Below, piece by piece: positions 9,394-52,388 of a DNA stretch of 64,000 nucleotides (positions are counted from its first letter, which is position 1; every line of letters begins with the position of its first letter). Under the pieces are notes generated by a model, which was given only the letters and a program-made list of their open reading frames with translations, was not told the origin of the DNA and made no database searches. Location: positions 1-64,000 of the forward strand of contig CAMNPM010000003.1 in the NCBI GenBank assembly GCA_946548065.1. Reading direction: 5' to 3'. This DNA comes from an uncultured Prevotella sp. GTDB taxonomy: Bacteria; Bacteroidota; Bacteroidia; Bacteroidales; Bacteroidaceae. The position numbers were made by a program, and so were the translations under genes.

Positions 9394-11412
9394 GTGAATC
9401 AGAAGCCACTCATTTCAACTATAATGCTGGGTATGATGATTTTCATGCCCAGCATGTGTTTTTCAGCCAAATCGGACTCTACACTACTGAGCCGTATTTG
9501 GAATTACCACCGCAACTACACCCGGTCAGTGAAAGGTCTGGAGCAGAACATCTACCTTTGTTACAGTTTCACAACCGAAAGACGCAACCCTACCCTATTC
9601 CTTGTACCGACGATGTATGTCATTGCCAAAGGAGACCGCCGATATATAGGAGAATCGTACTGTAAGATTAAGTTCCGCGACACCAATGACTACGACCTGA
9701 ATCGCCAGGTAGTGGCAGGCACCATACCTCGCCAGCGCACAGCAATGCCTGCTATCTTTCAGTCTATTACCCCCAACTTCTACGAAGAGACCATCTATAA
9801 GGGCAGCATGCTGTCGCCATTCCACAAGTCGAACAAGAGTTTCTACCGCTATAGCATTGACTATGCGGAAGGCAATCTGGCCATCGTTCGCTTTAAGCCC
9901 CGGAACATTAACACCCAGCTCATCAGCGGTCAGGCAATAGTAGACAATGCCACAGGACGCCTGCAGTCTGTACAGTTTGAGGGCGAATTCGACATGATAA
10001 GATTCAAGGTCTCTACGCTGATGAATATGGAAGACCAGCAAACCCCACTGCCAGCACGCTGCACCACGGAGGCCACCTTCAGGTTTCTTGGCAATCGCAT
10101 TAGCTCGCATTGCACTGCGGTATATAATTGTCCTACCACCCTCCCCGACACTTTGAAGGAGGAAGCCGACCGTAAACTAATGGCAGAGCTGCGTCCTATT
10201 CCGCTGTCAACAGAGGATCAAGACATCTATCATGTCTTCGACGAACAGCGAATGAAGGAACTGGCTGCAGAGCATAAAGACACGACCAAACAGTCAAAAG
10301 ACTGGGACTGGGTGAAGGAGGTTGGCTGGGACATCATAGGAGACAACCTCGTCAACGGACACCGAACAGGTTCAGGACCTTTCAGCATGCGCGTGTCGCC
10401 ACTACTCAACCCCTTCTATCTGGGGTATAGCCAGAGCGACGGTCTCAGCTACAAGCTCGACGTTGGTGTACAATACACGTGGAACGCATATCGCTACTTG
10501 ACCCTCAACGCGCAGCTGGGCTATAACTTCAAGCAACGGCAGTTCTACTTCAACCTTCCCCTGCGCATGAACTATAATCCCAAGCGCAACGGCTATGCAG
10601 AAATCAGGTATGCCAACGGCAACCGCATCTCCAACGGCAGTCTGGCCGAAGACTTCCATAAAAAGATGGACCACAAGGTGGATATGCCTCAATTTAACGA
10701 CCGTTACCTCCAGGTAGTGAATAACATCGGAGTCTTCGACTGGCTGGAGGTGATGACGGGTGTAGTCTATCACAGGCGCACATCAACCGACGAGAAGCTC
10801 ATGAGGGAAGCAGGCATGGAGCACTCGTTCACCAGCTTTGCCCCACTACTCACTCTTCGCATCACTCCTTGGCACAAAGGCCCCACTTTGACAGCTAATT
10901 ACGAGCGGAGCATCAAAAATTTCCTGAACTCCAATCTCGACTACGAGCGATGGGAGTTTGATGCATCCTACAAGCGCCACCTGCACAGTCTGCGCATTCT
11001 GAACCTCAGGGCCGGAGCGGGTTTCTACACTGCGCGCAACTCCAACTACTTTGTTGACTTCGAGAAGTTCCGTGCCAATAATCTGCCACAAGGATGGGAG
11101 GACGACTGGACCGGCCACTTCCAGCTGCTCAACAGCCGCTGGTATAACGAGTCGAACTACTACATTCGAGGCAATGCCTCCTACGACTCGCCTATGATGC
11201 TCATCTCACACCTACCCATCTTCGGCCGCTATATCGAGACAGAGCGCATCTATCTGAGTGCGCTCAGCATTGAGCACACCCGTCCCTACTTTGAGCTGGG
11301 CTACGGATTCTCGAATCGCTATCTCTCGGCGGCCGCGTTTACAAGTTTCCTCAATACCAAGATAGAGAGAGTAGGATTTAAAATCACCCTACAATTATTT
11401 AGCCGATGGTAA
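9394..11412 (+). CDS. DUF5686-like outer-membrane protein
   Basis: Large exported protein (672 aa) that I match to the Bacteroidota DUF5686 group. These usually have an N-terminal carboxypeptidase-like module and a C-terminal beta-barrel; this one seems to lack the N-terminal module. A signal peptide (about residues 1-25, ending MCFSA) is followed by a soluble region and, from about 320, alternating aromatic strands typical of an outer-membrane barrel, ending in FSRW. The start is uncertain. The GTG at 9394 gives a Lys-containing signal peptide but lies almost on the predicted transcript start; the ATG at 9424 gives a normal 30-nt leader but an uncharged signal peptide. The 3' end overlaps addA by 7 bp. 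Function unknown. Confidence 0.8.
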   Translation: MNQKPLISTIMLGMMIFMPSMCFSAKSDSTLLSRIWNYHRNYTRSVKGLEQNIYLCYSFTTERRNPTLFLVPTMYVIAKGDRRYIGESYCKIKFRDTNDYDLNRQVVAGTIPRQRTAMPAIFQSITPNFYEETIYKGSMLSPFHKSNKSFYRYSIDYAEGNLAIVRFKPRNINTQLISGQAIVDNATGRLQSVQFEGEFDMIRFKVSTLMNMEDQQTPLPARCTTEATFRFLGNRISSHCTAVYNCPTTLPDTLKEEADRKLMAELRPIPLSTEDQDIYHVFDEQRMKELAAEHKDTTKQSKDWDWVKEVGWDIIGDNLVNGHRTGSGPFSMRVSPLLNPFYLGYSQSDGLSYKLDVGVQYTWNAYRYLTLNAQLGYNFKQRQFYFNLPLRMNYNPKRNGYAEIRYANGNRISNGSLAEDFHKKMDHKVDMPQFNDRYLQVVNNIGVFDWLEVMTGVVYHRRTSTDEKLMREAGMEHSFTSFAPLLTLRITPWHKGPTLTANYERSIKNFLNSNLDYERWEFDASYKRHLHSLRILNLRAGAGFYTARNSNYFVDFEKFRANNLPQGWEDDWTGHFQLLNSRWYNESNYYIRGNASYDSPMMLISHLPIFGRYIETERIYLSALSIEHTRPYFELGYGFSNRYLSAAAFTSFLNTKIERVGFKITLQLFSRW

Positions 11413-14400
11413 AACCACTTACCGTTTATAAAGCCAGTGCAGGATCGGGAAAGACGTTCACACTGGCTACAGAGTATATCAAACTGTTAGTACTAAACCC
11501 GCTGAGCTATCGCACCATCCTTGCCGTCACCTTCACCAACAAGGCTACTGAGGAGATGAAGATGCGTATCCTCAGCCAGCTGTATGGCATCTGGAAGCAA
11601 CTGCCGGACTCTGACGACTATGTGCGGAAGATTATGAAAGAGACCGGCCTTCCACTCGCCACCGTCAGCCAACGTTCGGGCGAGGCGCTCCACCTGCTAC
11701 TGCACAACTACAACTATTTCCGTGTGGAGACCATCGACACATTCTTCCAGAGTGTGCTGCGGAACCTGGCTCGCGAGCTCGACCTGACGGCCAACCTGCG
11801 CATTGGTCTCAATGATGTCCAGGTGGAGGAACAAGCCGTCGACCGGCTCATCGACTCGCTGACGCATACCGATGTCATGCTGCAATGGCTGCTGAAGTAT
11901 ATTATGGAGACCATCAGCGACGACCGTTCGTGGAACATCATCGGACAGGTGAAGCAGTTCGGGCGCACCATATTCCGCGACTACTACAAGGAGCACAGCC
12001 AGGAGCTGAACCAACTGGTGAACCAGAAGGGATTCCTGGAGGGCTATATGGGCCAGATGCGCACGATACGGAGCAATGCCCTTGCGCAGATGAAGGCACT
12101 GGGCGACGAGTTTTTCAGCATCCTTGACACTGAGAATATCAAGGTGGAAGACCTCAGCTATGGCAAGACCGGTGTAGCCTCCTTCTTCCTGAAGCTACAG
12201 AACGGTGTGATGGACGAAAGTATTATAGGCAAGCGGGTTACAGACTGTATGGAAGACGCCTCCAAATGGTATTCGAAGAAGAGCGGACAAGCCGAGCACA
12301 TCCATTTGCTGGCCGACGCGACCCTCATTCCCCTATTGCGCAAGGCCATTGAGGCACGTCCGCAGCAGTGGAAGCTCTATGCCTCCGCCGACCTCACGCT
12401 ACGTCATCTGAACCAGCTTCGCCTGCTTGGCAGCATCGAGCAGAAAGTGCGGCAGATGAACGACGAGGCCAACCGCTTCCTGCTCAGCGACACGCAGCAA
12501 CTGCTGCACTCGCTAATCAAAGACAGCGACTCTCCGTTTATCTTTGAGAAGATAGGCACGCAGCTGGAGCACGTGATGATAGACGAGTTCCAGGACACCT
12601 CCACCGTGCAATGGCAGAACTTCAAGGTACTGCTGCAGGAGTGCATGAGCCATGTGGACACCGAGAACCTCATCGTGGGCGATGTGAAGCAGAGCATATA
12701 CCGCTGGCGTTCGGGCGACTGGCGCCTGCTCAACGCTATCGACCGCGAGTTCCCCCGGGCCGACGAGCAACTGGACGTGCGTCCGCTGGACACGAACTAC
12801 CGCTCGGAGCGCAACATCATCGACTTCAACAATGCCTTCTTCACGGCGGCCGCACAGGTGGAGTACGACAGCATCCGCGAGGATTACCCCACGGGAGCCG
12901 AGCAACTGCGCGCCGCCTACGCCGACGTGAGGCAGGAAGTGCCACAGAAGCGCGGGCGGAACGGATATGTCAGCATTGCCCTGCTGCCCAAGAAGGACTA
13001 TCAGGAGCAGGTACTGGCGAGGATGGTTGAAACCATCGACTGGCTCATCGGCCAAGGTATTAGCCAGCAACGCATCGCCATACTGGTGCGCGTCAACAAG
13101 AGTATACCGCTGATAGCAGAGTACATAGGCACATACCGACCCGACATCAAGCTGGTGAGCGACGAAGCGTTCCGTCTGGACGCATCGGTATCGGTATGCC
13201 TCATCGTCCAGGCCCTGCACTTGCTGACGCACCCTTCCGACGTGCTGGCCAAGGCCACTGTGGCCAAGCTCTACCAGCGGTCCGTACTGGGTCGCGACGT
13301 GGCCGAGAACGAGCTGCTCATCAAGGACCAACCGCTCGACGAGCTGCTGCCCAAGGCATACATCGAGCACACAGACGAGCTGCTGCGGCTGCCGCTGTAT
13401 GAACTGGCCGAGCGCATCTATACTATCTTCCAGCTCCACTTGCTCAACGAACAGAGTGCGTATATCTGTGCCTTCTACGACCAGCTGAACCAGTTTGCGC
13501 AGGAAAACAGCACTGACATCGACGCCTTTGTGGCCGAGTGGGAGGAGACGCTCTGCAGTAAGACCATCCAGGACAGCGAACAGCACGGCATCCGCATTCT
13601 CTCTATCCACAAGAGCAAGGGTCTCGAGTACGACCACGTCATCATCCCCTACTGCGACTGGAAGCTGGAGCACGGCGACATCCTGTGGTGCGAGCCCAAG
13701 GAGGCCCCATTCGACGCGCTGCCCATCGTGCCTGTGGACTACAGCCAGAAGCAGATGACAGGCACCATCTACGAGCATCAGTATATGGACGAGCACCTGC
13801 AGAACACGGTGGACAACCTGAATCTGCTATACGTGGCGTTCACCCGTGCCTGCGAGAGCCTGCACGTCATCGGCCAGCGCAACAGCAAGGGCCGGCGTTC
13901 GGCGCTCATCGAGCAGGTACTGCCGCTGCTGCGGCTGGACGGTGGGACACTGGATGGAATGGAGGACGACGAGCGGGCCATCTGCTATAACTACGGCAGC
14001 ATGAACATCGTGGCGGAGGGGGCGGAAACGGCAACCGAGGCGGAGGGCAAGGACATGGCAACCGAGGCGGAACTGAATAGCGAGGCGGAGGGCGAGGACA
14101 TGGCAACGGAGGCGGAGGGCATGGGTGCGAAGGACCGGAGCGCCAATGTGTTCCTGCAGCCTGTGACACCGAAAGCCATCAGCCTGGAGACCTTCGAGGT
14201 GAAGACCGAATTCCGGCAGAGCAACAAGAGCCGCGACTTCATTGAGGGCGATGACGAGCAGTCGGAGCTGAGCTATATCAAGGTGGGCAGCGTGCTGCAC
14301 AACGTGTTCTCCACCATCCGCACGAGTGCCGACATCCCTCAGGCCCTGCTACAGCTGCAGCAGGACGGCATACTGTACGACGACGAGGTGACGCGCGAGA

Positions 14401-14720
14401 AGGTGACGGCGCTGCTACGCAAGAGGCTTGAAGATGAGCGTGTAAGGGGATGGTTCTCAGACCGTTGGCAGCTGTTCAACGAGTGTACCATCCTGACCTA
14501 TGTCGACGGGTGGATACAGGAGCGTCGTCCGGACCGAGTGATGACCGACGGGTGTGAGACCCACGTTGTGGACTTCAAGTTCGGCCGGCCGAGGGCGGAG
14601 TACCGCGAGCAGGTGGGCGAGTATATGGAGCTGCTGCGGCGCATGGGGATGCCCGGGGTGAGGGGCTGGCTCTGGTACGTATATATTAATAAGGTAGAAG
14701 AAGTGAGTATCGAGGAATGA
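11406..14720 (+). CDS. addA: AddA/RecB-like helicase-nuclease
   Basis: UvrD/Rep-family (SF1A) helicase with a C-terminal nuclease, the AddA-like subunit of a double-strand-break resection complex. Visible motifs: Walker A ASAGSGKTFTLA (residue 10), motif Ia AVTFTNKATEEMK, Walker B DEFQDTS (about 392), motif III GDVKQSIYRWRSGD, motif IV RSERNI, motif V ILSIHKSKGLEYD, motif VI YVAFTRACESL, and the PD-(D/E)XK core VVDFKFGRPR near the end. At 1104 aa it is typical for Bacteroidota. A Glu/Ala-rich low-complexity insert (about residues 866-910) separates helicase from nuclease. It overlaps the upstream gene by 7 bp and the addB homologue by 4 bp. Confidence 0.9.
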   Translation: MVKPLTVYKASAGSGKTFTLATEYIKLLVLNPLSYRTILAVTFTNKATEEMKMRILSQLYGIWKQLPDSDDYVRKIMKETGLPLATVSQRSGEALHLLLHNYNYFRVETIDTFFQSVLRNLARELDLTANLRIGLNDVQVEEQAVDRLIDSLTHTDVMLQWLLKYIMETISDDRSWNIIGQVKQFGRTIFRDYYKEHSQELNQLVNQKGFLEGYMGQMRTIRSNALAQMKALGDEFFSILDTENIKVEDLSYGKTGVASFFLKLQNGVMDESIIGKRVTDCMEDASKWYSKKSGQAEHIHLLADATLIPLLRKAIEARPQQWKLYASADLTLRHLNQLRLLGSIEQKVRQMNDEANRFLLSDTQQLLHSLIKDSDSPFIFEKIGTQLEHVMIDEFQDTSTVQWQNFKVLLQECMSHVDTENLIVGDVKQSIYRWRSGDWRLLNAIDREFPRADEQLDVRPLDTNYRSERNIIDFNNAFFTAAAQVEYDSIREDYPTGAEQLRAAYADVRQEVPQKRGRNGYVSIALLPKKDYQEQVLARMVETIDWLIGQGISQQRIAILVRVNKSIPLIAEYIGTYRPDIKLVSDEAFRLDASVSVCLIVQALHLLTHPSDVLAKATVAKLYQRSVLGRDVAENELLIKDQPLDELLPKAYIEHTDELLRLPLYELAERIYTIFQLHLLNEQSAYICAFYDQLNQFAQENSTDIDAFVAEWEETLCSKTIQDSEQHGIRILSIHKSKGLEYDHVIIPYCDWKLEHGDILWCEPKEAPFDALPIVPVDYSQKQMTGTIYEHQYMDEHLQNTVDNLNLLYVAFTRACESLHVIGQRNSKGRRSALIEQVLPLLRLDGGTLDGMEDDERAICYNYGSMNIVAEGAETATEAEGKDMATEAELNSEAEGEDMATEAEGMGAKDRSANVFLQPVTPKAISLETFEVKTEFRQSNKSRDFIEGDDEQSELSYIKVGSVLHNVFSTIRTSADIPQALLQLQQDGILYDDEVTREKVTALLRKRLEDERVRGWFSDRWQLFNECTILTYVDGWIQERRPDRVMTDGCETHVVDFKFGRPRAEYREQVGEYMELLRRMGMPGVRGWLWYVYINKVEEVSIEE
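14001..14130 (+). repeat. Glu/Ala-coding repeats in addA
   Basis: Imperfect purine-rich repeats around gcaaccgaggcggag occur three times and encode ATEAEG-type peptides between the helicase and nuclease parts. The composition (GA-rich) differs from the flanking gene. Confidence 0.75.
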
Positions 14721-17683
14721 AAGACTTTTTATCATACGTTACTGAGGACATCCTCAGTAAATACGGCACCGACTTGTCGCGCGTGGCCGTGGTATTCCCC
14801 AATAAGCGCGCGTCGCTGTTCCTCAACGAACACCTGGCTCGTCTGGCGCAGAAGCCGCTGTGGAGTCCGGCCTACATCACCATCAGCGAGCTGTTCCGCA
14901 GGGAGTCGTCGCTACAGGTGGCCGACCCCATCAAGCTTGTGTGCGAGCTGCACAAGTCGTTCTGCCGGCAGACGGGCTCCACGGAGACGCTGGACAAGTT
15001 CTACGGCTGGGGCCAGCTGCTGCTCAGTGACTTCGACGACATCGACAAGAACATGGCCGACGCGGACCGCGTGTTCGCCAACCTGAGGGACATACACGAG
15101 CTGGACGATGTCTCCTACCTCACAGATGAGCAGAGGGCCATGATACAGCGGTTCTTCAGCAACTTCAGTGCCGACCACAACAGCGAGCTGAAGGAGCGGT
15201 TCCTGCGCCTGTGGAGCCACTTCGCCGACATATACCACGACTTCAACGAGCACCTGCTGGCCCAGGGGCTGGCGTATGAGGGAGCACTCTACCGGCGCGT
15301 GGTGGAGGAGGTGTGCAGGCATGGTGAAGATAGCGGCGAGGGTATAGGAAAAGAGGCGGGAAAATATAGTGATGCAAATGGGGCCGAAATAGGGGCCGAA
15401 ATGCTTTGCTATAGCAAAGCCAGTGGGTTTGCTATAGCAAAGCCACTAGGTTTGCTATATGAAAGCTATTTGTTCGTCGGTTTCAATCTGCTGCAGAAGG
15501 TAGAGCAACAGCTGTTCGCTGCGTTGCAGAAGTCGGGCAAGGCACACTTCTATTGGGACTTCGACCACTACTATGTGAAGGGCAGCGAGGGCGCGTCGAC
15601 GATGAAGGGCAACGAGGCGGGGCAGTACATCGGTCGCTACTTGCAGCAGTTCGGTAATGAGCTGGACAGTGGGTCGGAAGAGATATACGGAAACTTCCGC
15701 CGCGAGAAGCGCATCAGCTTCGTCTCTGCCCCGACGGAGAACGTGCAGGCGCGGTTCGTTCCCACGTGGCTTCGCGAGGGGGAGCGGTGGAGCAAGGGAC
15801 GGCGCACGGCAATCGTGCTGTGTAACGAAGCGTTGCTGCCTGTAGTGATACACTGCCTGCCGCAGGAGGTGGAGAAGGTGAACGTGACCACGGGCTACCC
15901 GCTGTCGCAGACTGCCGTGGCATCGTTCATCCAACTGTGGTTCAACCTGCTGTTGCAGGGACGGACGCCGAGGCTGCTACGGGCTTTCCAGCGGCATCCC
16001 TATGCCAAGTACATCGAGGAAATAGTGACGGACGGACAGGAGAAAAAGAGGAGCACGGAGCAAGACGCAGCGGGTGAAGTGAGGCCCGACACTACGGGTA
16101 CGGAGCAAGAATCAGCAGGCGAAGAGAGGCCCGACGGCAGTAGGCTTTCGGCGCTGTGCGCTATGCTGCGGCAGATTGCTCAGCAGGGGAAGGAGGAGAT
16201 AGGCGACCCGCTGTTCCAGGAGTCGCTGTTCCGTGCCTACACGCTGGTGAACCGTCTTGACGAGCTGAGCAGGACGGGCGACCTGGTGGTGGACGACAAT
16301 ACGCTGCAACGGCTGACGACACAGCTGCTGCAGCAGACGAGCATACCGTTCCACGGCGAGCCGGCCGAGGGACTGCAGGTGATGGGCGTACTGGAGACGA
16401 GGAACCTGGACTTCGACCACGTGCTGCTGCTCTCGTGCAACGAGGGCAACCTGCCACGGGGCATCAACGACAGTTCGTTTATCCCGCACAGCATCCGCCG
16501 CGCGTACGAGCTGACGACGGTGGAGAACAAGGTGGGCATCTATGCCTACTACTTCCACCGCCTGCTGCAACGTGCGGGCGACGTGACCATCGTGTACAAC
16601 AACTCGACGGAGGACGGTCAGCGGGGCGAGATGAGCCGCTTCATGCTGCAGCTGATGGTAGAGAGCGGCCACCGCATCAACAGGCACACGCTGCGCACCG
16701 GGCAGGGCGTGGAGCGCTGGCAACCGCAGGCGATAGCGAAGACAGAGCGCGTGATGCGGGCGCTGGGCGAGCACTTCTTCCAGAAGGACTCGCTGCTGTC
16801 GCCGTCGGCCATCAACAAGTATATGCGCTGCCCGCTGCAGTTCTACTACAACTACGCTGCCGACATACGCCAGCCGGACGTTCCGGACGATGAACAGGAG
16901 CTGGACAACCGTATCTTCGGCAACATCTTCCACGAGGCTGCCGACCTGATATACCACCGTCTGCCGCGCGAGGTGAACAAGGCGGTGCTGGAGCATCTGC
17001 TACAGTCGAAGGTGGAGATAGAACGTGCCGTTGACGAAGCTTTCCACCATGCCATGCCGTACATGCCGACGGGCGGACTGCACCTCATCAACCGCGAGGT
17101 GATTATCCACTACCTGCGGCAGCTGCTGCGCATTGACATGCGGCTGGCGCCGTTCACGATACTGGGTCTGGAGTGCGACGTGCATAGGGACATCGAGGTG
17201 ACGCTACGCGAGGGAGGCCCGGAGGAGCGCGGCGAGCGGCGGCAGAGGCTACGGCTGGGCGGGCGAATAGACCGTCTGGACCTGATGGGCGACGGCACGG
17301 TGCGGGTGGTGGACTACAAGACGGGCAGCCGCCAGCTGAAAGCACTGGCCGACGTGGAGGCCATATTCGCGCCGGAGAACATCCACGAGCACTCCGACTA
17401 TTACCTGCAGACCTTTGTGTATGCCGACATCGTGAGCCGCGAGCGTCGCCAGCCCGTGGTTCCGGCACTGCTGTTCATACAGCATGCGGGCGGCGAGGAC
17501 TACGACCCGGTGCTGAAGTTCGGGCGAGAGCAGGTGGGCGACATAGCGCAGCACTCGGAGCGGTTCAACGAGCTGCTGCTGCAGAAGATAGGCGAAATGT
17601 TCTCGACGGACATACCCTTTACACCTACTGACGACCTGCGCATCTGCCAGACGTGCCCCTACGCGCCCTTCTGCCGCCGTTAA
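14717..17683 (+). CDS. addB: AddB-like PD-(D/E)XK nuclease
   Basis: Partner of the AddA-like helicase (988 aa). The N-terminus has an AddB-type fold without a functional Walker A (RVAVVFPNKRASLFLNEHL). The C-terminus is a RecB-type nuclease with VVDYKTGSRQ. A cysteine in YMRCPLQFYYNY and a C-terminal CQTCPYAPFC would form the iron-sulfur staple seen in AddB. The ATG overlaps the addA stop (ATGA). Two repeat-derived inserts interrupt it: a 23-bp tandem repeat coding for residues around 215-250, and a 15-residue duplication around 445-475. Because the 23-bp period is not a multiple of three, copy-number change would truncate the protein before the nuclease. Confidence 0.88.
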   Translation: MKDFLSYVTEDILSKYGTDLSRVAVVFPNKRASLFLNEHLARLAQKPLWSPAYITISELFRRESSLQVADPIKLVCELHKSFCRQTGSTETLDKFYGWGQLLLSDFDDIDKNMADADRVFANLRDIHELDDVSYLTDEQRAMIQRFFSNFSADHNSELKERFLRLWSHFADIYHDFNEHLLAQGLAYEGALYRRVVEEVCRHGEDSGEGIGKEAGKYSDANGAEIGAEMLCYSKASGFAIAKPLGLLYESYLFVGFNLLQKVEQQLFAALQKSGKAHFYWDFDHYYVKGSEGASTMKGNEAGQYIGRYLQQFGNELDSGSEEIYGNFRREKRISFVSAPTENVQARFVPTWLREGERWSKGRRTAIVLCNEALLPVVIHCLPQEVEKVNVTTGYPLSQTAVASFIQLWFNLLLQGRTPRLLRAFQRHPYAKYIEEIVTDGQEKKRSTEQDAAGEVRPDTTGTEQESAGEERPDGSRLSALCAMLRQIAQQGKEEIGDPLFQESLFRAYTLVNRLDELSRTGDLVVDDNTLQRLTTQLLQQTSIPFHGEPAEGLQVMGVLETRNLDFDHVLLLSCNEGNLPRGINDSSFIPHSIRRAYELTTVENKVGIYAYYFHRLLQRAGDVTIVYNNSTEDGQRGEMSRFMLQLMVESGHRINRHTLRTGQGVERWQPQAIAKTERVMRALGEHFFQKDSLLSPSAINKYMRCPLQFYYNYAADIRQPDVPDDEQELDNRIFGNIFHEAADLIYHRLPREVNKAVLEHLLQSKVEIERAVDEAFHHAMPYMPTGGLHLINREVIIHYLRQLLRIDMRLAPFTILGLECDVHRDIEVTLREGGPEERGERRQRLRLGGRIDRLDLMGDGTVRVVDYKTGSRQLKALADVEAIFAPENIHEHSDYYLQTFVYADIVSRERRQPVVPALLFIQHAGGEDYDPVLKFGREQVGDIAQHSERFNELLLQKIGEMFSTDIPFTPTDDLRICQTCPYAPFCRR
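15405..15465 (+). repeat. 23-bp palindrome-containing repeat x2.6 in addB
   Basis: Copies start at 15405, 15428 and 15451 (partial). Each complete copy contains the perfect palindrome TTTGCTATAGCAAA; the third is degenerate (tttgctatatgaaa). The region is AT-richer than its surroundings. A GGGGCCGAAATA duplication lies just upstream (about 15380-15402). Since 23 is not divisible by three, successive copies are read in different frames (YSKAS / AIAKP / LYES). Confidence 0.9.
16055..16144 (+). repeat. 45-bp in-frame tandem duplication in addB
   Basis: Two copies start at 16055 and 16100 with acggagcaaga and encode the 15-residue units TEQDAAGEVRPDTTG and TEQESAGEERPDGSR. The insert is hydrophilic and probably an exposed loop. 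Confidence 0.8.
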
Positions 17684-23610: not shown

Positions 23611-26294
23611 TCCAGCGACAGCAACTGACGCTGTTCCTCCTCATAGTGCTCGCGAAGATGCTCATAGCGGCTCCCCAGCTCGCGCTCCATCTTGCGGCCC
23701 TCAGCGCGGTCCATCAAGCGGGCCGCAACCAGCGCGTTCTGCGAAGCATCCTTCATCCACACCACCGGACCGCCATATACCGGAGCAATCTTCAGAGCCA
23801 CATGCAGCTCGCTCGTCGTAGCACCGCCTATCATCACCGGAATGTCCAGCCCGGCACGCTCCAACTCGCGGCACACGTTCACCATCTCCTCCAGCGAAGG
23901 AGTAATCAGACCCGACAGACCAATCATGTCAACGCCCTCCTCACGGGCCTTGCGCACTATCTGCTCGGCAGGCACCATCACGCCCATGTCTATCACCTCA
24001 TAGCCGTTGCAAGCCATGATCACACCCACGATGTTCTTACCAATGTCATGCACGTCGCCCTTCACCGTGGCCAGCAGCACCTTGCCGCTCTTACGCGCTC
24101 CCGGGCCGCGCTGCTCCTCAATATACGGCTGCAGAATACCCACAGCCTGCTTCATCGTGCGCGCCGTCTTCACCACCTGCGGCAGGAACATCTTGCCCTC
24201 GCCGAACAGCTGGCCCACACGGTTCATCCCCGCCATCAGCGGACCCTCGATAATGTCGACCGCCCGCCCATACTTACCCAGAGCCTCCCGCAGGTCCTCC
24301 TCCAAACGGTCGCCAACGCCCTTCACCAGAGCCTCCTGCAACCGCTCCTCCACCCCGCCATCCCGACTAGGGCTACTAGTCCCCCTAGGACTACTAGGAC
24401 CACTAGCCCCACTAGTCCCACTAGTCCCACTAGTCCCACTAGCCTCCCTAGCCTCCCCCAGCCGCGCAGCCAGCGCAATGAGCCGCTCCGAAGCACCAGT
24501 GCAGCGGTTCAAGATAACATCCTCGATCATCTCCAGCTCATCGCCAGGAATATCACTATACTGCACCTTCATCGCCGGGTTGACAATGGCAAAGTCCATC
24601 CCCGCCTGTATGGCGTGATACAGGAACACCGCATGCATCGCCTCGCGGATATAGTTGTTGCCCCGAAACGAGAACGACAGATTAGACACGCCGCCGCTGA
24701 CATGCGCGCCCGGCAGGTTCTCGCGTATCCAGCGCGTGGCACGGATGAAGTCGGCAGCATATGCGTCGTGCTCCTCCATACCCGTGGCAACGGCCAGGAT
24801 ATTCGGGTCGAAGATAATATCCAGCGGATTGAAGCCCACCTCCTCCGTCAGCAGCCGATACGAACGCTCGGCAATGGCAATCCGACGCTCGTAGCTGGTG
24901 GCCTGCCCTTCCTCGTCGAAGCACATCACCACCACGGCAGCACCATAGCGCTTCACGTCGCGGGCATGACGGAGGAACACCGCCTCGCCCTCCTTCAGCG
25001 AAATGCTGTTGACGATGCCCTTGCCCTGCAGACACTTCAGGCCTGCCACAATGACATCCCAGTCGCTCGAGTCTATCATCACCGGCACCGCTGCTATATC
25101 GGGCTCGGCAGCTATCGTATTGAGAAACGTCACCATCTCGCGGCGGGCATCCAACAGCCCGTCGTCCATGTTCACATCGAGCACCAACGCACCGTCGGCC
25201 ACCTGCTTGCGGGCTATCGCAACCGCCTCGTCGTACTGATGTTCCTTGATGAGACGCAGGAACTTGCGCGAACCGGCCACGTTGCAGCGCTCGCCTATCA
25301 CATTGAACGTCGAGGGCTGGATCTGTAGAACGTCCAGCCCGCTGAGCTGCATCTGCTGCACAGCGGCGGCAGGCCGACGGGGCGACTTGCCCTGTACCAA
25401 AGGCACATAGCGGGCAATGAACTCGGGAGTGGTGCCGCAGCAGCCACCGATGATGTTCACCAGGCCCTCGTCCACCATCTGCCCCATCTTCGGGGCCATG
25501 CTCTCAGCAGTCTCGTCGTAGAGTCCCAGCGCATTGGGCAGACCGGCATTGGGATAGGCACTAATATAATAAGGTGACTTGCTGGCCATCTGGCGCAGAT
25601 AAGGCAACATCTGCGTAGCACCGAACGAACAGTTCAGTCCCACCGAGAAGACGGGATACGACGACACGGAGGCCAGGAAGGCATCGATGGTCTGTCCGCT
25701 CAGTGTGCGGCCCGCCAGGTCGCTGACGGTCATGCTGAGCATCAGCGGAACCCGTCGTCCTCGGGCTTTCATCGCCTGCAAGGCGGCATCCATGGCCACC
25801 TTGGCATTCAGGGTGTCGAAGATGGTCTCCACCAGCACGGCATCCACCCCACCCTCCAGCAGGGCGTCGGCCTCCTCGTAATAGGCATCGAACAGCGTAT
25901 CGTAATCCAACTCGCGCAGCGCCGGGTTCGACACGTCGGGCGACATCGAGCACGTCTTGTTCGTCGGACCTATCGACCCGGCCACGAAGCGCGGCTTGTC
26001 CGGCGAAGAGAACTCATCGGCGCACTGACGGGCGATGCAGGCTCCCTCAAGGGCCATCCGGCGAGCCTGCTCCTCCATGTGATAGTCGGCCTGCGAGATG
26101 CGCTGAGCACTAAACGTATTCGTAGTGATGATGTCGGCTCCTGCAGCCAGATACTGCCGGTGGATATCGGCTATCACGTCAGGACGCGACAGGTTGAGCG
26201 CGTCGGAGTTGCCCGTCTTACCCAATATCTGCCCTATCATGGTACCCATCGCACCATCCAGTATCAATATGCGTTCTCTGATTACTTGCTCCAT
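23580..26294 (-). CDS. metH: Cobalamin-dependent methionine synthase, short form
   Basis: Transfers the methyl group of methyl-THF to homocysteine through B12. Domains: homocysteine S-methyltransferase (about 1-300, zinc cysteines in VGLNCSFG and [11 protein letters not shown]), pterin-binding (about 310-590, [16 protein letters not shown]), B12 cap (about 655-735) and B12-binding (about 740-880, DVHDIGKN with the axial His, then GLSGLITPS and IGGATTS). The C-terminal SAM-dependent reactivation domain of the 1227-aa E. coli enzyme is missing, as far as I know the usual state in Bacteroidota. A Ser/Gly/Thr linker near residues 613-645 is coded by a 9-bp CTAG repeat. It overlaps smpB by 13 bp; there is no room for a riboswitch. 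Confidence 0.96.
24366..24455 (-). repeat. 9-bp CTAG repeat x10 inside metH
   Basis: Ten consecutive nonamers in perfect register, all of the form (A/C)CTAGNNNN on the plus strand (for example actagtccc x4, actagcccc, actaggacc). They code for the TSG/ASG/SSP linker between the pterin and B12-cap domains. The period is a multiple of three, so frame is kept. Confidence 0.92.
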
Positions 26295-50221: not shown

Positions 50222-52282
50222 ATGCAAAAAGGCAACATCGGGGTTACCACAGAGAACATTTTCCCCGTCATCAAAAAGTTTCTCTATTCAGACCATGAGA
50301 TTTTCCTGCGCGAGATGGTGAGCAACGCCGTCGATGCCACACAGAAGCTGAAGACGCTGGCCCAGCAGGGCGACTTCAAGGGCGAGCTGGGCGACCTGAC
50401 CGTCCACGTCAGCCTGGACACGGAGAAAGGCACCATCACCATCTCCGACCGAGGCATCGGCATGACCGAGGAGGAAATCGACAAGTACATCAACCAGATA
50501 GCCTTCTCAGGCGTCAACGACTTCCTGGAGAAGTACAAGGACAATGCCAACAACATCATCGGCCACTTCGGACTGGGCTTCTACTCCTCGTTCATGGTGT
50601 CGAAGAAGGTGGAGATCATCACCCGCTCCTACAAGGAAGGTGCCAAGGCCGTGAAGTGGAGCTGCGACGGCTCGCCGGCCTACGAGATTGACGAGGCTGA
50701 GAAGGACGACCGCGGCAGCGACATCATCCTCTACGTCGACGACGACTGCAAGGAGTTTCTCGAGAAGGAGCGCATACAGCAGCTCCTGAACAAGTACTGC
50801 AAGTTCATGGCCGTGCCTGTGGCCTTCGGCAAGAAGCAGGAGTGGTCGAGCGACGAGAAGAAGATGGTAGACACACAGGAGGACAATATTATTAATAATG
50901 TGGAGCCGCTCTGGACCAAAGCCCCCTCATCGCTCAAGGACGAGGACTACAAGTCGTTCTACCGCACACTCTACCCCATGAGCGACGAACCCATGTTCTG
51001 GATTCACCTCAACGTTGACTATCCCTTCAACCTGACGGGTATCCTCTACTTCCCCCGCATCAAGTCGAACATCGACCTGCAGCGCAACAAGATACAGCTC
51101 TACTGCAACCAGGTCTTCGTCACCGACCAGGTGGAAGGCATCGTGCCTGAGTTCCTCACCCTGCTGCATGGTGTCATCGACTCACCCGACATCCCCCTGA
51201 ACGTCAGCCGCAGCTATCTGCAGAGCGACCGCGAGGTGAAGAAGATATCGACCTATATCACCAAGAAAGTGGCCGACCGCCTGCAGGCCATCTTCAAGGA
51301 GAACCGCAAGGAGTACGAGGAGAAGTGGGACGACCTGAAGCTCTTCATCAACTACGGCATGCTCTCTGAAGAGTCGTTCTACGACCGCGCCAAGGACTTC
51401 GCCCTGTTCAAGGACACCGACGGCAAGCACTTCACCTTCGACGAGTACAAGACCCTCATCGAGTCGGCCCAGAAGGACAAGAACGACCAGCTGGTCTACC
51501 TCTATGCCACCGACCGCGAGGAGCAGTACTCCTACATCCAGGCTGCCAAGGACAAGGGCTACTCAGTGCTGCTGCTCGACGGCCAGCTCGACGTGCCTGC
51601 CATCCAGATGCTGGAGCAGAAGTTCGAGAAGAGCCACTTCACGCGTGTCGATGCCGACATCATCGACCGTCTGATTGTCAAGGACGACCAGCCTAAGTCG
51701 AACCTGTCAGACGACGAGTCTGCCAATCTGTCACAGGTGTTCAAGTCGCAGATGCCCAAGATGGAGAAGACCGAGTTCATGGTCGAGGTGCAGAGCCTGG
51801 GCGAGAGCCAGCGTCCGGTGGTCATCACCCAGAACGAGTGGATGCGCCGCATGAAGGAGATGAGCCGCTTCCAGCAGGGCATGAACTTCTACGCCCAGAT
51901 GCCCGACTCGATGAACCTCGTGCTGAACAGCGACCATCGTCTCGTCAAGGAGATTCTCTCAACTCTCAACTCTCAACTCTCAACTGACCTGAAGCCCATC
52001 GATGCCGAGCTGAAGGGTCAGGAGGCCCGTCTGGCAGCCATCCGCCAGCAGCAGGAGGGCAAGAAGCCCGAGGAGCTGACGCAGGACGACAAGGACATGA
52101 AGGCCGAGTGCGAGAAAGCCATCGAGGAGCAGAAGCAGAAGAAGCAGGATGTGCTCAGCGGCTTTGCAGCCCAGAACGATGTCGTACACCAGCTCATCGA
52201 TCTGGCACTGCTCCAGAACGGCATGCTCAAGGGCGAGGCGCTGGACAAGTTCCTCAAGCGCTCCGTCGACCTCATCAAGTAG
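50222..52282 (+). CDS. htpG: Molecular chaperone HtpG (Hsp90)
   Basis: Cytosolic Hsp90 ATPase, 686 aa. GHKL motifs: EMVSNAVDATQKL (usual SNASDA with Val), ISDRGIGMTEEEI, GHFGLGFYSSFMVS; middle domain LYFPRI and NVSRSYLQSDREVKKI with the catalytic Arg region; C-terminal dimerisation domain ending LIDLALLQNGMLKGEAL. As in other Bacteroidota, there is a charged helical insertion before the last helices. That region starts with STLNSQLSTD, coded by a 7-bp tandem repeat. No C-terminal MEEVD, as expected for bacteria. It is preceded by a sigma-54 promoter and followed by a doubled hairpin terminator. Confidence 0.97.
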   Translation: MQKGNIGVTTENIFPVIKKFLYSDHEIFLREMVSNAVDATQKLKTLAQQGDFKGELGDLTVHVSLDTEKGTITISDRGIGMTEEEIDKYINQIAFSGVNDFLEKYKDNANNIIGHFGLGFYSSFMVSKKVEIITRSYKEGAKAVKWSCDGSPAYEIDEAEKDDRGSDIILYVDDDCKEFLEKERIQQLLNKYCKFMAVPVAFGKKQEWSSDEKKMVDTQEDNIINNVEPLWTKAPSSLKDEDYKSFYRTLYPMSDEPMFWIHLNVDYPFNLTGILYFPRIKSNIDLQRNKIQLYCNQVFVTDQVEGIVPEFLTLLHGVIDSPDIPLNVSRSYLQSDREVKKISTYITKKVADRLQAIFKENRKEYEEKWDDLKLFINYGMLSEESFYDRAKDFALFKDTDGKHFTFDEYKTLIESAQKDKNDQLVYLYATDREEQYSYIQAAKDKGYSVLLLDGQLDVPAIQMLEQKFEKSHFTRVDADIIDRLIVKDDQPKSNLSDDESANLSQVFKSQMPKMEKTEFMVEVQSLGESQRPVVITQNEWMRRMKEMSRFQQGMNFYAQMPDSMNLVLNSDHRLVKEILSTLNSQLSTDLKPIDAELKGQEARLAAIRQQQEGKKPEELTQDDKDMKAECEKAIEEQKQKKQDVLSGFAAQNDVVHQLIDLALLQNGMLKGEALDKFLKRSVDLIK
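51958..51985 (+). repeat. 7-bp tandem repeat CTCAACT x4 inside htpG
   Basis: Four perfect copies of ctcaact in a row, preceded by a further ct. The period is not a multiple of three: loss or gain of one unit would shift the frame about 100 codons before the HtpG end and remove the dimerisation helices. Confidence 0.97.
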
Positions 52283-52302: not shown

Positions 52303-52388
52303 TGAGTTAGCTCGATTCATCGTCCGAGCTAACTCACAACATCAAATGAGTTAGCTCTATCGACAACATGAGCTAACTCATTTTTTTT
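52303..52388 (+). terminator. Tandemly duplicated hairpin terminator after htpG
   Basis: TGAGTTAGCTC...GAGCTAACTCA occurs twice (52303-52336 and 52347-52380), 44 bp apart. Both stems are 11 bp and identical, so four mutually complementary arms allow alternative pairings. Only the second copy is followed by a T-tract (eight T). Confidence 0.9.

What the first reader, a model, noticed from the sequence alone, without database searches (positions are those of the whole stretch)
15405..15465. 23-bp palindromic repeat in the AddB-like nuclease gene
TTTGCTATAGCAAA palindromes repeat with a 23-bp period inside a conserved DNA-repair gene. Because 23 is not a multiple of three, each copy is read in another frame and copy-number change would knock the nuclease out. 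It could make recombinational repair switchable, or be a mobile palindromic element inserted into a coding region, as described for Rickettsia palindromic elements. The nearby GGGGCCGAAATA duplication shows continued local repeat growth.
Basis: partly seen in the sequence, partly recalled or inferred. Interest (0 to 1): 0.7.

Follow-up and report, generated by a model that had tools for sequence, protein, structure and literature searches.

The report
Palindromic repeats in AddB linker
A bacterium carries a tandem 23-bp palindrome inside its DNA-repair gene addB; it sits in a species-specific, dispensable stretch of the protein where related species carry different palindromes, so it is most likely tolerated repeat DNA rather than an on/off switch.

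Summary
Two perfect TTTGCTATAGCAAA palindromes and a third copy with two mismatches lie 23 bp apart at 15405-15464, in an intact AddB-like ORF. They lie in a 77-residue linker that is 34 residues in most of the genus, so about 43 codons are an in-frame, lineage-specific expansion. The 18-bp palindrome (up to 3 mismatches) occurs nowhere else in the genome.

The surroundings were more surprising. Relatives carry different palindromes in the same addB linker. One, TGTTGCTGTGnCACAGCAACA, is dispersed through their genomes (69 copies examined, 63 in ORFs) with covarying arms. A second family, TTCCCAnnnTGGGAA at 22-bp pitch and usually in threes, occurs in 86 of 398 genus genomes and in three ORFs here.

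Best reading: a locally grown palindromic repeat in a tolerant linker, seeded by the host's own imperfect palindrome and kept in frame by selection. Main rival: a rare coding palindromic element of the RPE/REP kind. Gaining or losing one unit would truncate AddB near residue 241-248, but nothing shows that this happens. In-frame palindromes in addA/addB are already reported in Wolbachia, and REPs in recBCD genes. Verdict: new variant of a known kind, moderate interest.

The parts
14717..17683 (+). addB-like gene (988 aa), PD-(D/E)XK nuclease domain at residues 694-987; starts within the last codons of the addA/recB-like gene 11406-14720
15305..15457 (+). expanded linker, residues 197-247, between conserved YEGALYR and the Y-x-x-Y before FVGFN; about 43 codons longer than in most of the genus; GC about 50% against 60% for the gene
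15380..15403 (+). GGGGCCGAAATA / GGGGCCGAAATG 12-bp direct duplication, in frame
15405..15427 (+). palindromic unit 1, TTTGCTATAGCAAA plus spacer GCCAGTGGG (perfect palindrome; 18 bp at 15403-15420)
15428..15450 (+). palindromic unit 2, TTTGCTATAGCAAA plus spacer GCCACTAGG (perfect palindrome)
15451..15466 (+). unit 3, TTTGCTATATGAAAGC, imperfect; its right half 15458-15466 (TATGAAAGC) is the start of the conserved Y-E-S-Y codons, so it is probably host sequence and the likely seed; the TAT removes the TAG that a perfect copy would put in frame

Best explanation
The feature is a short tandem array of palindromic units that grew inside a length-variable, dispensable linker of AddB. The seed was most likely the host's own imperfect palindrome TTTGCTATATGAAAGC, whose right half is the codons of the conserved Y-E-S-Y. 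A 23-bp duplication, together with template-switch (quasipalindrome) correction at a hairpin, gave two perfect copies upstream. Selection on the ORF kept only length combinations that preserve the frame and avoid the TAG present in one frame of the unit. The encoded peptide is tolerated rather than functional, and the array is not a switch. Shown: anatomy, uniqueness, lineage-specific in-frame expansion, intact downstream domain, recurrent palindromes in the same linker in relatives. Inferred: the seed, the template-switch step, neutrality.
For: Unique in the genome: 18-mer with up to 3 mismatches only here; the 181-bp region has no other similar place. Expansion of 43 codons against the usual 34-aa linker. 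Copy 3 overlaps conserved host codons, and 7 of its 9 host bases (TATGAAAGC) match the unit (TAGCAAAGC), about 0.001 by chance if the host sequence were unrelated (hand calculation, made after the fact). Other repeat growth in the same linker and in two more linkers of addA/addB. A strong hairpin forms there. Template switching making imperfect palindromes perfect is established in E. coli (PMC7202029). The ORF is intact.
Against: The layout (14-15-bp palindromes at 22-23-bp pitch, three units, in an ORF) is shared with the dispersed TTCCCAnnnTGGGAA family, and TTTGCnnnnGCAAA pairs are dispersed in one relative, G034, which favours an inserted element. Two units add 46 bp, not a multiple of three, so a compensating length change elsewhere in the insert must be assumed. 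No ancestor with only the seed was found.
Confidence: 0.5

Rival explanations
1. It is an inserted coding palindromic element, a rare or decayed member of a class of dispersed tandem palindromes in this genus. Such elements spread through genes and spacers and survive where they fall in frame in a loop, as RPE, WPE and intragenic REP do.
For: TTCCCAnnnTGGGAA triads at 22-bp pitch in three ORFs of this genome and in 86 of 398 genus genomes, control 0. TGTTGCTGTGnCACAGCAACA dispersed in ten relatives and present in their addB linker. TTTGCnnnnGCAAA pairs dispersed in G034. Clean in-frame insertions of 10-13 aa against orthologues for the TGTTGCTGTG family.
Against: This sequence is at one locus only in its genome. 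Copy 3 overlaps conserved host codons. No Y1 (REP-type) transposase in this genome or in three of the six relatives searched.
Confidence: 0.35
2. The hairpin itself is selected: it acts in addB mRNA or DNA, for example as a translation pause at a domain boundary or as an array of protein-binding sites two helical turns apart.
For: Very stable fold. Different palindromes recur at the same place in relatives. Arms of the TGTTGCTGTG family covary. Pitch of 22-23 bp is shared between unrelated families.
Against: Most relatives have no hairpin in this linker: 0 of 56 standard linkers and 30 of 39 expanded ones not significant. Closest relatives G428 and G135 have a 33-aa linker without one. Sequences differ between species.
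Confidence: 0.12
3. A contingency switch: gain or loss of 23-bp units turns AddB off and on and so makes recombinational repair switchable.
For: 23 is not a multiple of three, and gain or loss of one unit stops AddB at about residue 241-248 of 988.
Against: Only two perfect units, few for a hypermutable contingency locus (general knowledge). No allele variation seen, though none could be tested here. The same linker expands in relatives with many unrelated sequences, all in frame.
Confidence: 0.03

Closest known systems
Wolbachia palindromic element (WPE)-like inserts in addA, addB and priA (Badawi et al. 2014, PMC4224334; citing Ogata et al. 2005)
   Same: Palindromic stretches inside addA and addB, in frame, without stops in most strains, gene apparently functional
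   Different: Those stretches are about 170-840 bp in an endosymbiont and resemble a dispersed family; here a 64-bp tandem of 14-bp palindromes found at one locus of the genome
Rickettsia palindromic element (RPE; Ogata et al. 2000, reviewed in PMC2229807)
   Same: Palindromic DNA within conserved ORFs, translated, tolerated; Gmk with an RPE stays active according to the review
   Different: RPEs are 105-146 bp and dispersed in one genome; this unit is 23 bp and not dispersed
Intragenic REPs, GTAG and CGTC super-families (Di Nocera et al. 2013, PMC3733652)
   Same: 20-40-bp palindromes inside ORFs, notably uvrA, uvrB, recBCD; different REPs at about the same site of recB in two Xanthomonas species
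   Different: No GTAG or CGTC tag is evident here; REPs are multicopy, this sequence is not; GTAG REPs are linked to tyrosine transposases
Quasipalindrome template-switch mutation hotspots (PMC7202029)
   Same: Imperfect palindrome turned into a perfect one at a hairpin
   Different: Known cases correct one palindrome; here there is also a 23-bp tandem repetition

Membership tests
RPE/WPE coding palindromic elements | Family of similar copies dispersed in the genome | tested here: not met
   18-mer with up to 3 mismatches only at this locus; 14-mer exact only here
RPE/WPE coding palindromic elements | In-frame insertion in a conserved ORF, absent from orthologues | tested here: met
   77-aa linker against 34 aa in most relatives; ORF intact
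RPE/WPE coding palindromic elements | Insert is translated and the protein works | not testable with these tools
   Needs expression and an assay
RPE/WPE coding palindromic elements | Element of about 105-146 bp with long stem (RPE) | tested here: not met
   Repeat spans 64 bp (15403-15466)
REP (GTAG/CGTC) | Multicopy 20-40-bp palindrome with a GTAG or CGTC tag at one end | tested here: not met
   Single locus; no such tag at the ends of 15403-15466 (sequence)
REP (GTAG/CGTC) | Y1/RAYT transposase in the genome (GTAG families) | tested here: not met
   PF01797 not found in this genome, which is 74% complete
Phase-variable contingency repeat | Copy number varies between alleles | not testable with these tools
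Phase-variable contingency repeat | Unit change shifts the frame | tested here: met
   Plus or minus one unit stops at residue 241-248
Quasipalindrome template-switch product | Imperfect palindrome in the ancestor, perfect in the descendant | tested here: inconclusive
   Imperfect copy 3 lies beside two perfect copies; no ancestor close enough to compare

The most novel reading that the evidence does not exclude
A large Bacteroidales genus carries several unrelated families of short palindromes, some as triads at a two-helical-turn pitch, that repeatedly enter conserved ORFs in frame and keep their arms complementary, sometimes replacing codons without length change. That would be a new class of coding palindromic element, of which the addB array is a rare member.
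Probability: 0.3. Interest if true: 0.65.

Novelty: new variant of a known kind. Interest (0 to 1): 0.42.

Why it matters
Palindromic elements inside conserved genes are known mainly from Rickettsia and Wolbachia, plus intragenic REPs. Here a genus with hundreds of sequenced species shows several families in ORFs, with the same addB linker holding different palindromes in different species. That gives a comparative system to ask whether such palindromes insert as elements or are created in place by template switching, and how proteins absorb them. A methyltransferase gene where a palindrome stands in place of conserved codons without length change is a sharp test case. Together with the Wolbachia addA/addB and REP/recBCD reports, it also raises the question of why RecBCD/AddAB-type genes so often carry palindromes.

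Tried and rejected
Dispersed copies of this palindrome: none. The 34 hits of the paired pattern across GTDB genomes are in scattered, mostly unrelated taxa and were not followed up. REP with Y1 transposase: none in this genome. Preference of the TGTTGCTGTG family for ORFs: 63 of 69, but ORFs as called cover about 95% of the sampled sequence of this genome, so no enrichment. Solved structure for AddB to place the linker: no relative found by sequence. Structure prediction was not run: a single sequence would be poor, and loci from the genome search are not on the list of permitted inputs. Literature: no paper found for 'palindromic element' with Prevotella.

Full report
Observation. Two perfect copies of TTTGCTATAGCAAA (15405-15418, 15428-15441) and a third with two mismatches (15451-15464) lie 23 bp apart. 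None of 100 shuffles of the window gave three matches. The 15403-15466 stretch is also one large imperfect inverted repeat, and its fold is much more stable than shuffles. The repeat lies in an intact 988-aa ORF, 14717-17683. Its C-terminal PD-(D/E)XK domain is clear, the AddB family models match in part but below their cut-offs, and it follows an AddA/RecB-like helicase with a 4-bp overlap. The C-terminal cysteines expected of an AddB iron-sulphur site are present by eye (the expectation is general knowledge). The gene therefore looks functional.

Insertion or conserved? In 98 linkers from genus and order relatives, the stretch between YEGxLYR and FVGFN is usually 34 aa; here it is 77. The extra 43 codons are an in-frame expansion, lower in GC (50%, against 60% for the gene).

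Frames and copy number. The three copies are read in three frames. One frame of the unit contains TAG, so three perfect copies in tandem would truncate the protein; the third copy avoids it with TATATG instead of TATAGC. Removing or adding one unit stops translation near residue 241-248. This makes a switch possible in principle but gives no evidence for one.

The same linker in relatives. Several close relatives have other inverted repeats at the same spot: TGTTGCTGTGnCACAGCAACA in G333, G301, G402 and, with one more mismatch, G033; TGTTGTCATGccATGACAACA in G265 and, imperfectly, G178; TGTTGCGACtcgGTCGCAACA in G321. In codon-shuffle tests, 9 of 39 expanded linkers but 0 of 56 standard ones have an inverted repeat at p<=0.05; these species are related, so the nine are not all independent. 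Other relatives carry 7-mer microsatellites there (CTCACCT, TCAATTC). The linker is a place where repeat DNA accumulates.

Dispersed families. TGTTGCTGTGnCACAGCAACA is dispersed in all ten relatives searched. Of 69 distinct copies examined, 63 lie in ORFs, mostly in two of the three frames, which is about what the coding fraction predicts. The arms covary: at pair 4/18 there are 65 Watson-Crick pairs of 69, against 45 expected, in three types. The copies were collected by similarity to a palindrome and filtered for pairing, which leans towards this result. Compared with orthologues, some copies are clean in-frame insertions of about 10-13 aa. In a SAM-methyltransferase gene, however, the palindrome encodes CCCDTAT or similar in place of VCGDGVE with no length change. 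A second family, TTCCCAnnnTGGGAA at 22-bp pitch, sits in three ORFs of the sampled part of this genome with exactly three copies each and occurs in 86 of 398 genus genomes with zero control matches. In one array per genome, 20 of 30 have three copies, in ORFs and outside alike. TTTGCnnnnGCAAA pairs at 20-23 bp pitch occur in 5 of 398 genomes, dispersed in G034.

Interpretation. Two origins fit. Local growth is favoured by uniqueness and by copy 3, whose right half is the host's conserved Y-E-S-Y codons, so the unit seems derived from the host. It is also favoured by the other repeats in this linker and in two more linkers of AddA and AddB. An inserted element is favoured by the shared triad layout and by the dispersed families. 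I put 0.5 on the first and 0.35 on the second. In both, the peptide is a tolerated linker.

Known precedents. Wolbachia addA and addB carry in-frame WPE-like palindromes that mostly do not inactivate them (PMC4224334). REPs occur in recBCD and uvr genes (PMC3733652). RPE inserts are translated, and Gmk with one is active (PMC2229807). Long coding palindromes occur in Nematomorpha mitochondria (PMC6649704). That the genus is Prevotella in the GTDB sense is my inference from its size and order and was not tested.

Limits. One draft genome, 74% complete; no strain alleles; only 848 kb of the genome read in full; the seed argument is after the fact; ORFs are mechanical calls.

Noticed in passing
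L173:8890-8948, L189:6126-6184, L196:17158-17216 (same genome): TTCCCAnnnTGGGAA palindromes, exactly three per array, spaced 22 bp, inside three unrelated ORFs; family present in 86 of 398 genus genomes.
   Followed up: partly
L148-L169, L210-L249 (relatives): Dispersed TGTTGCTGTGnCACAGCAACA palindrome with covarying arms and weaker outer arms GTTCAGT../..AACNNAAC, mostly inside ORFs.
   Followed up: partly
L173 ORF of 442 aa; L247, L295, L297: In a methyltransferase gene this palindrome stands in place of conserved codons (CCCDTAT for VCGDGVE) with no length change; two of these genes also carry the TTCCCA triad.
   Followed up: partly
L166 (G301) and L169 (G123): Orthologous glycosyltransferase-like ORFs carry two different palindromes at the same site (TGTCGCTGTGcCACAGCGACA and TGTTGTCATGcCATGACAACA), as in addB.
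   Followed up: no
L152, L156, L211, L228, L237: The TGTTGCTGTG palindrome forms part of an N-terminal signal-peptide-like sequence in what look like orthologues of five species.
   Followed up: no
L174:14560, L202:5673, L204:12588, L208:19776, L198:77; window about 52303-52383: GAGTTAACTC palindromes spaced 22 bp in dispersed, mostly intergenic arrays; the window pair is a GAGTTAGCTC variant.
   Followed up: no
window 14016-14141 and 16052-16141: AddA and AddB each have a further repeat-rich acidic linker (ATEAEG repeats; TEQ..AGE.RPD repeat).
   Followed up: no
window 24366-24453, 51956-51985; L181, L190, L191, L197 and others: Many tandem arrays with units of 7, 8 or 9 bp (CTCTCAA, ATCGAAAC, CTAGTnnnn) run through ORFs, many with periods not divisible by three.
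   Followed up: no
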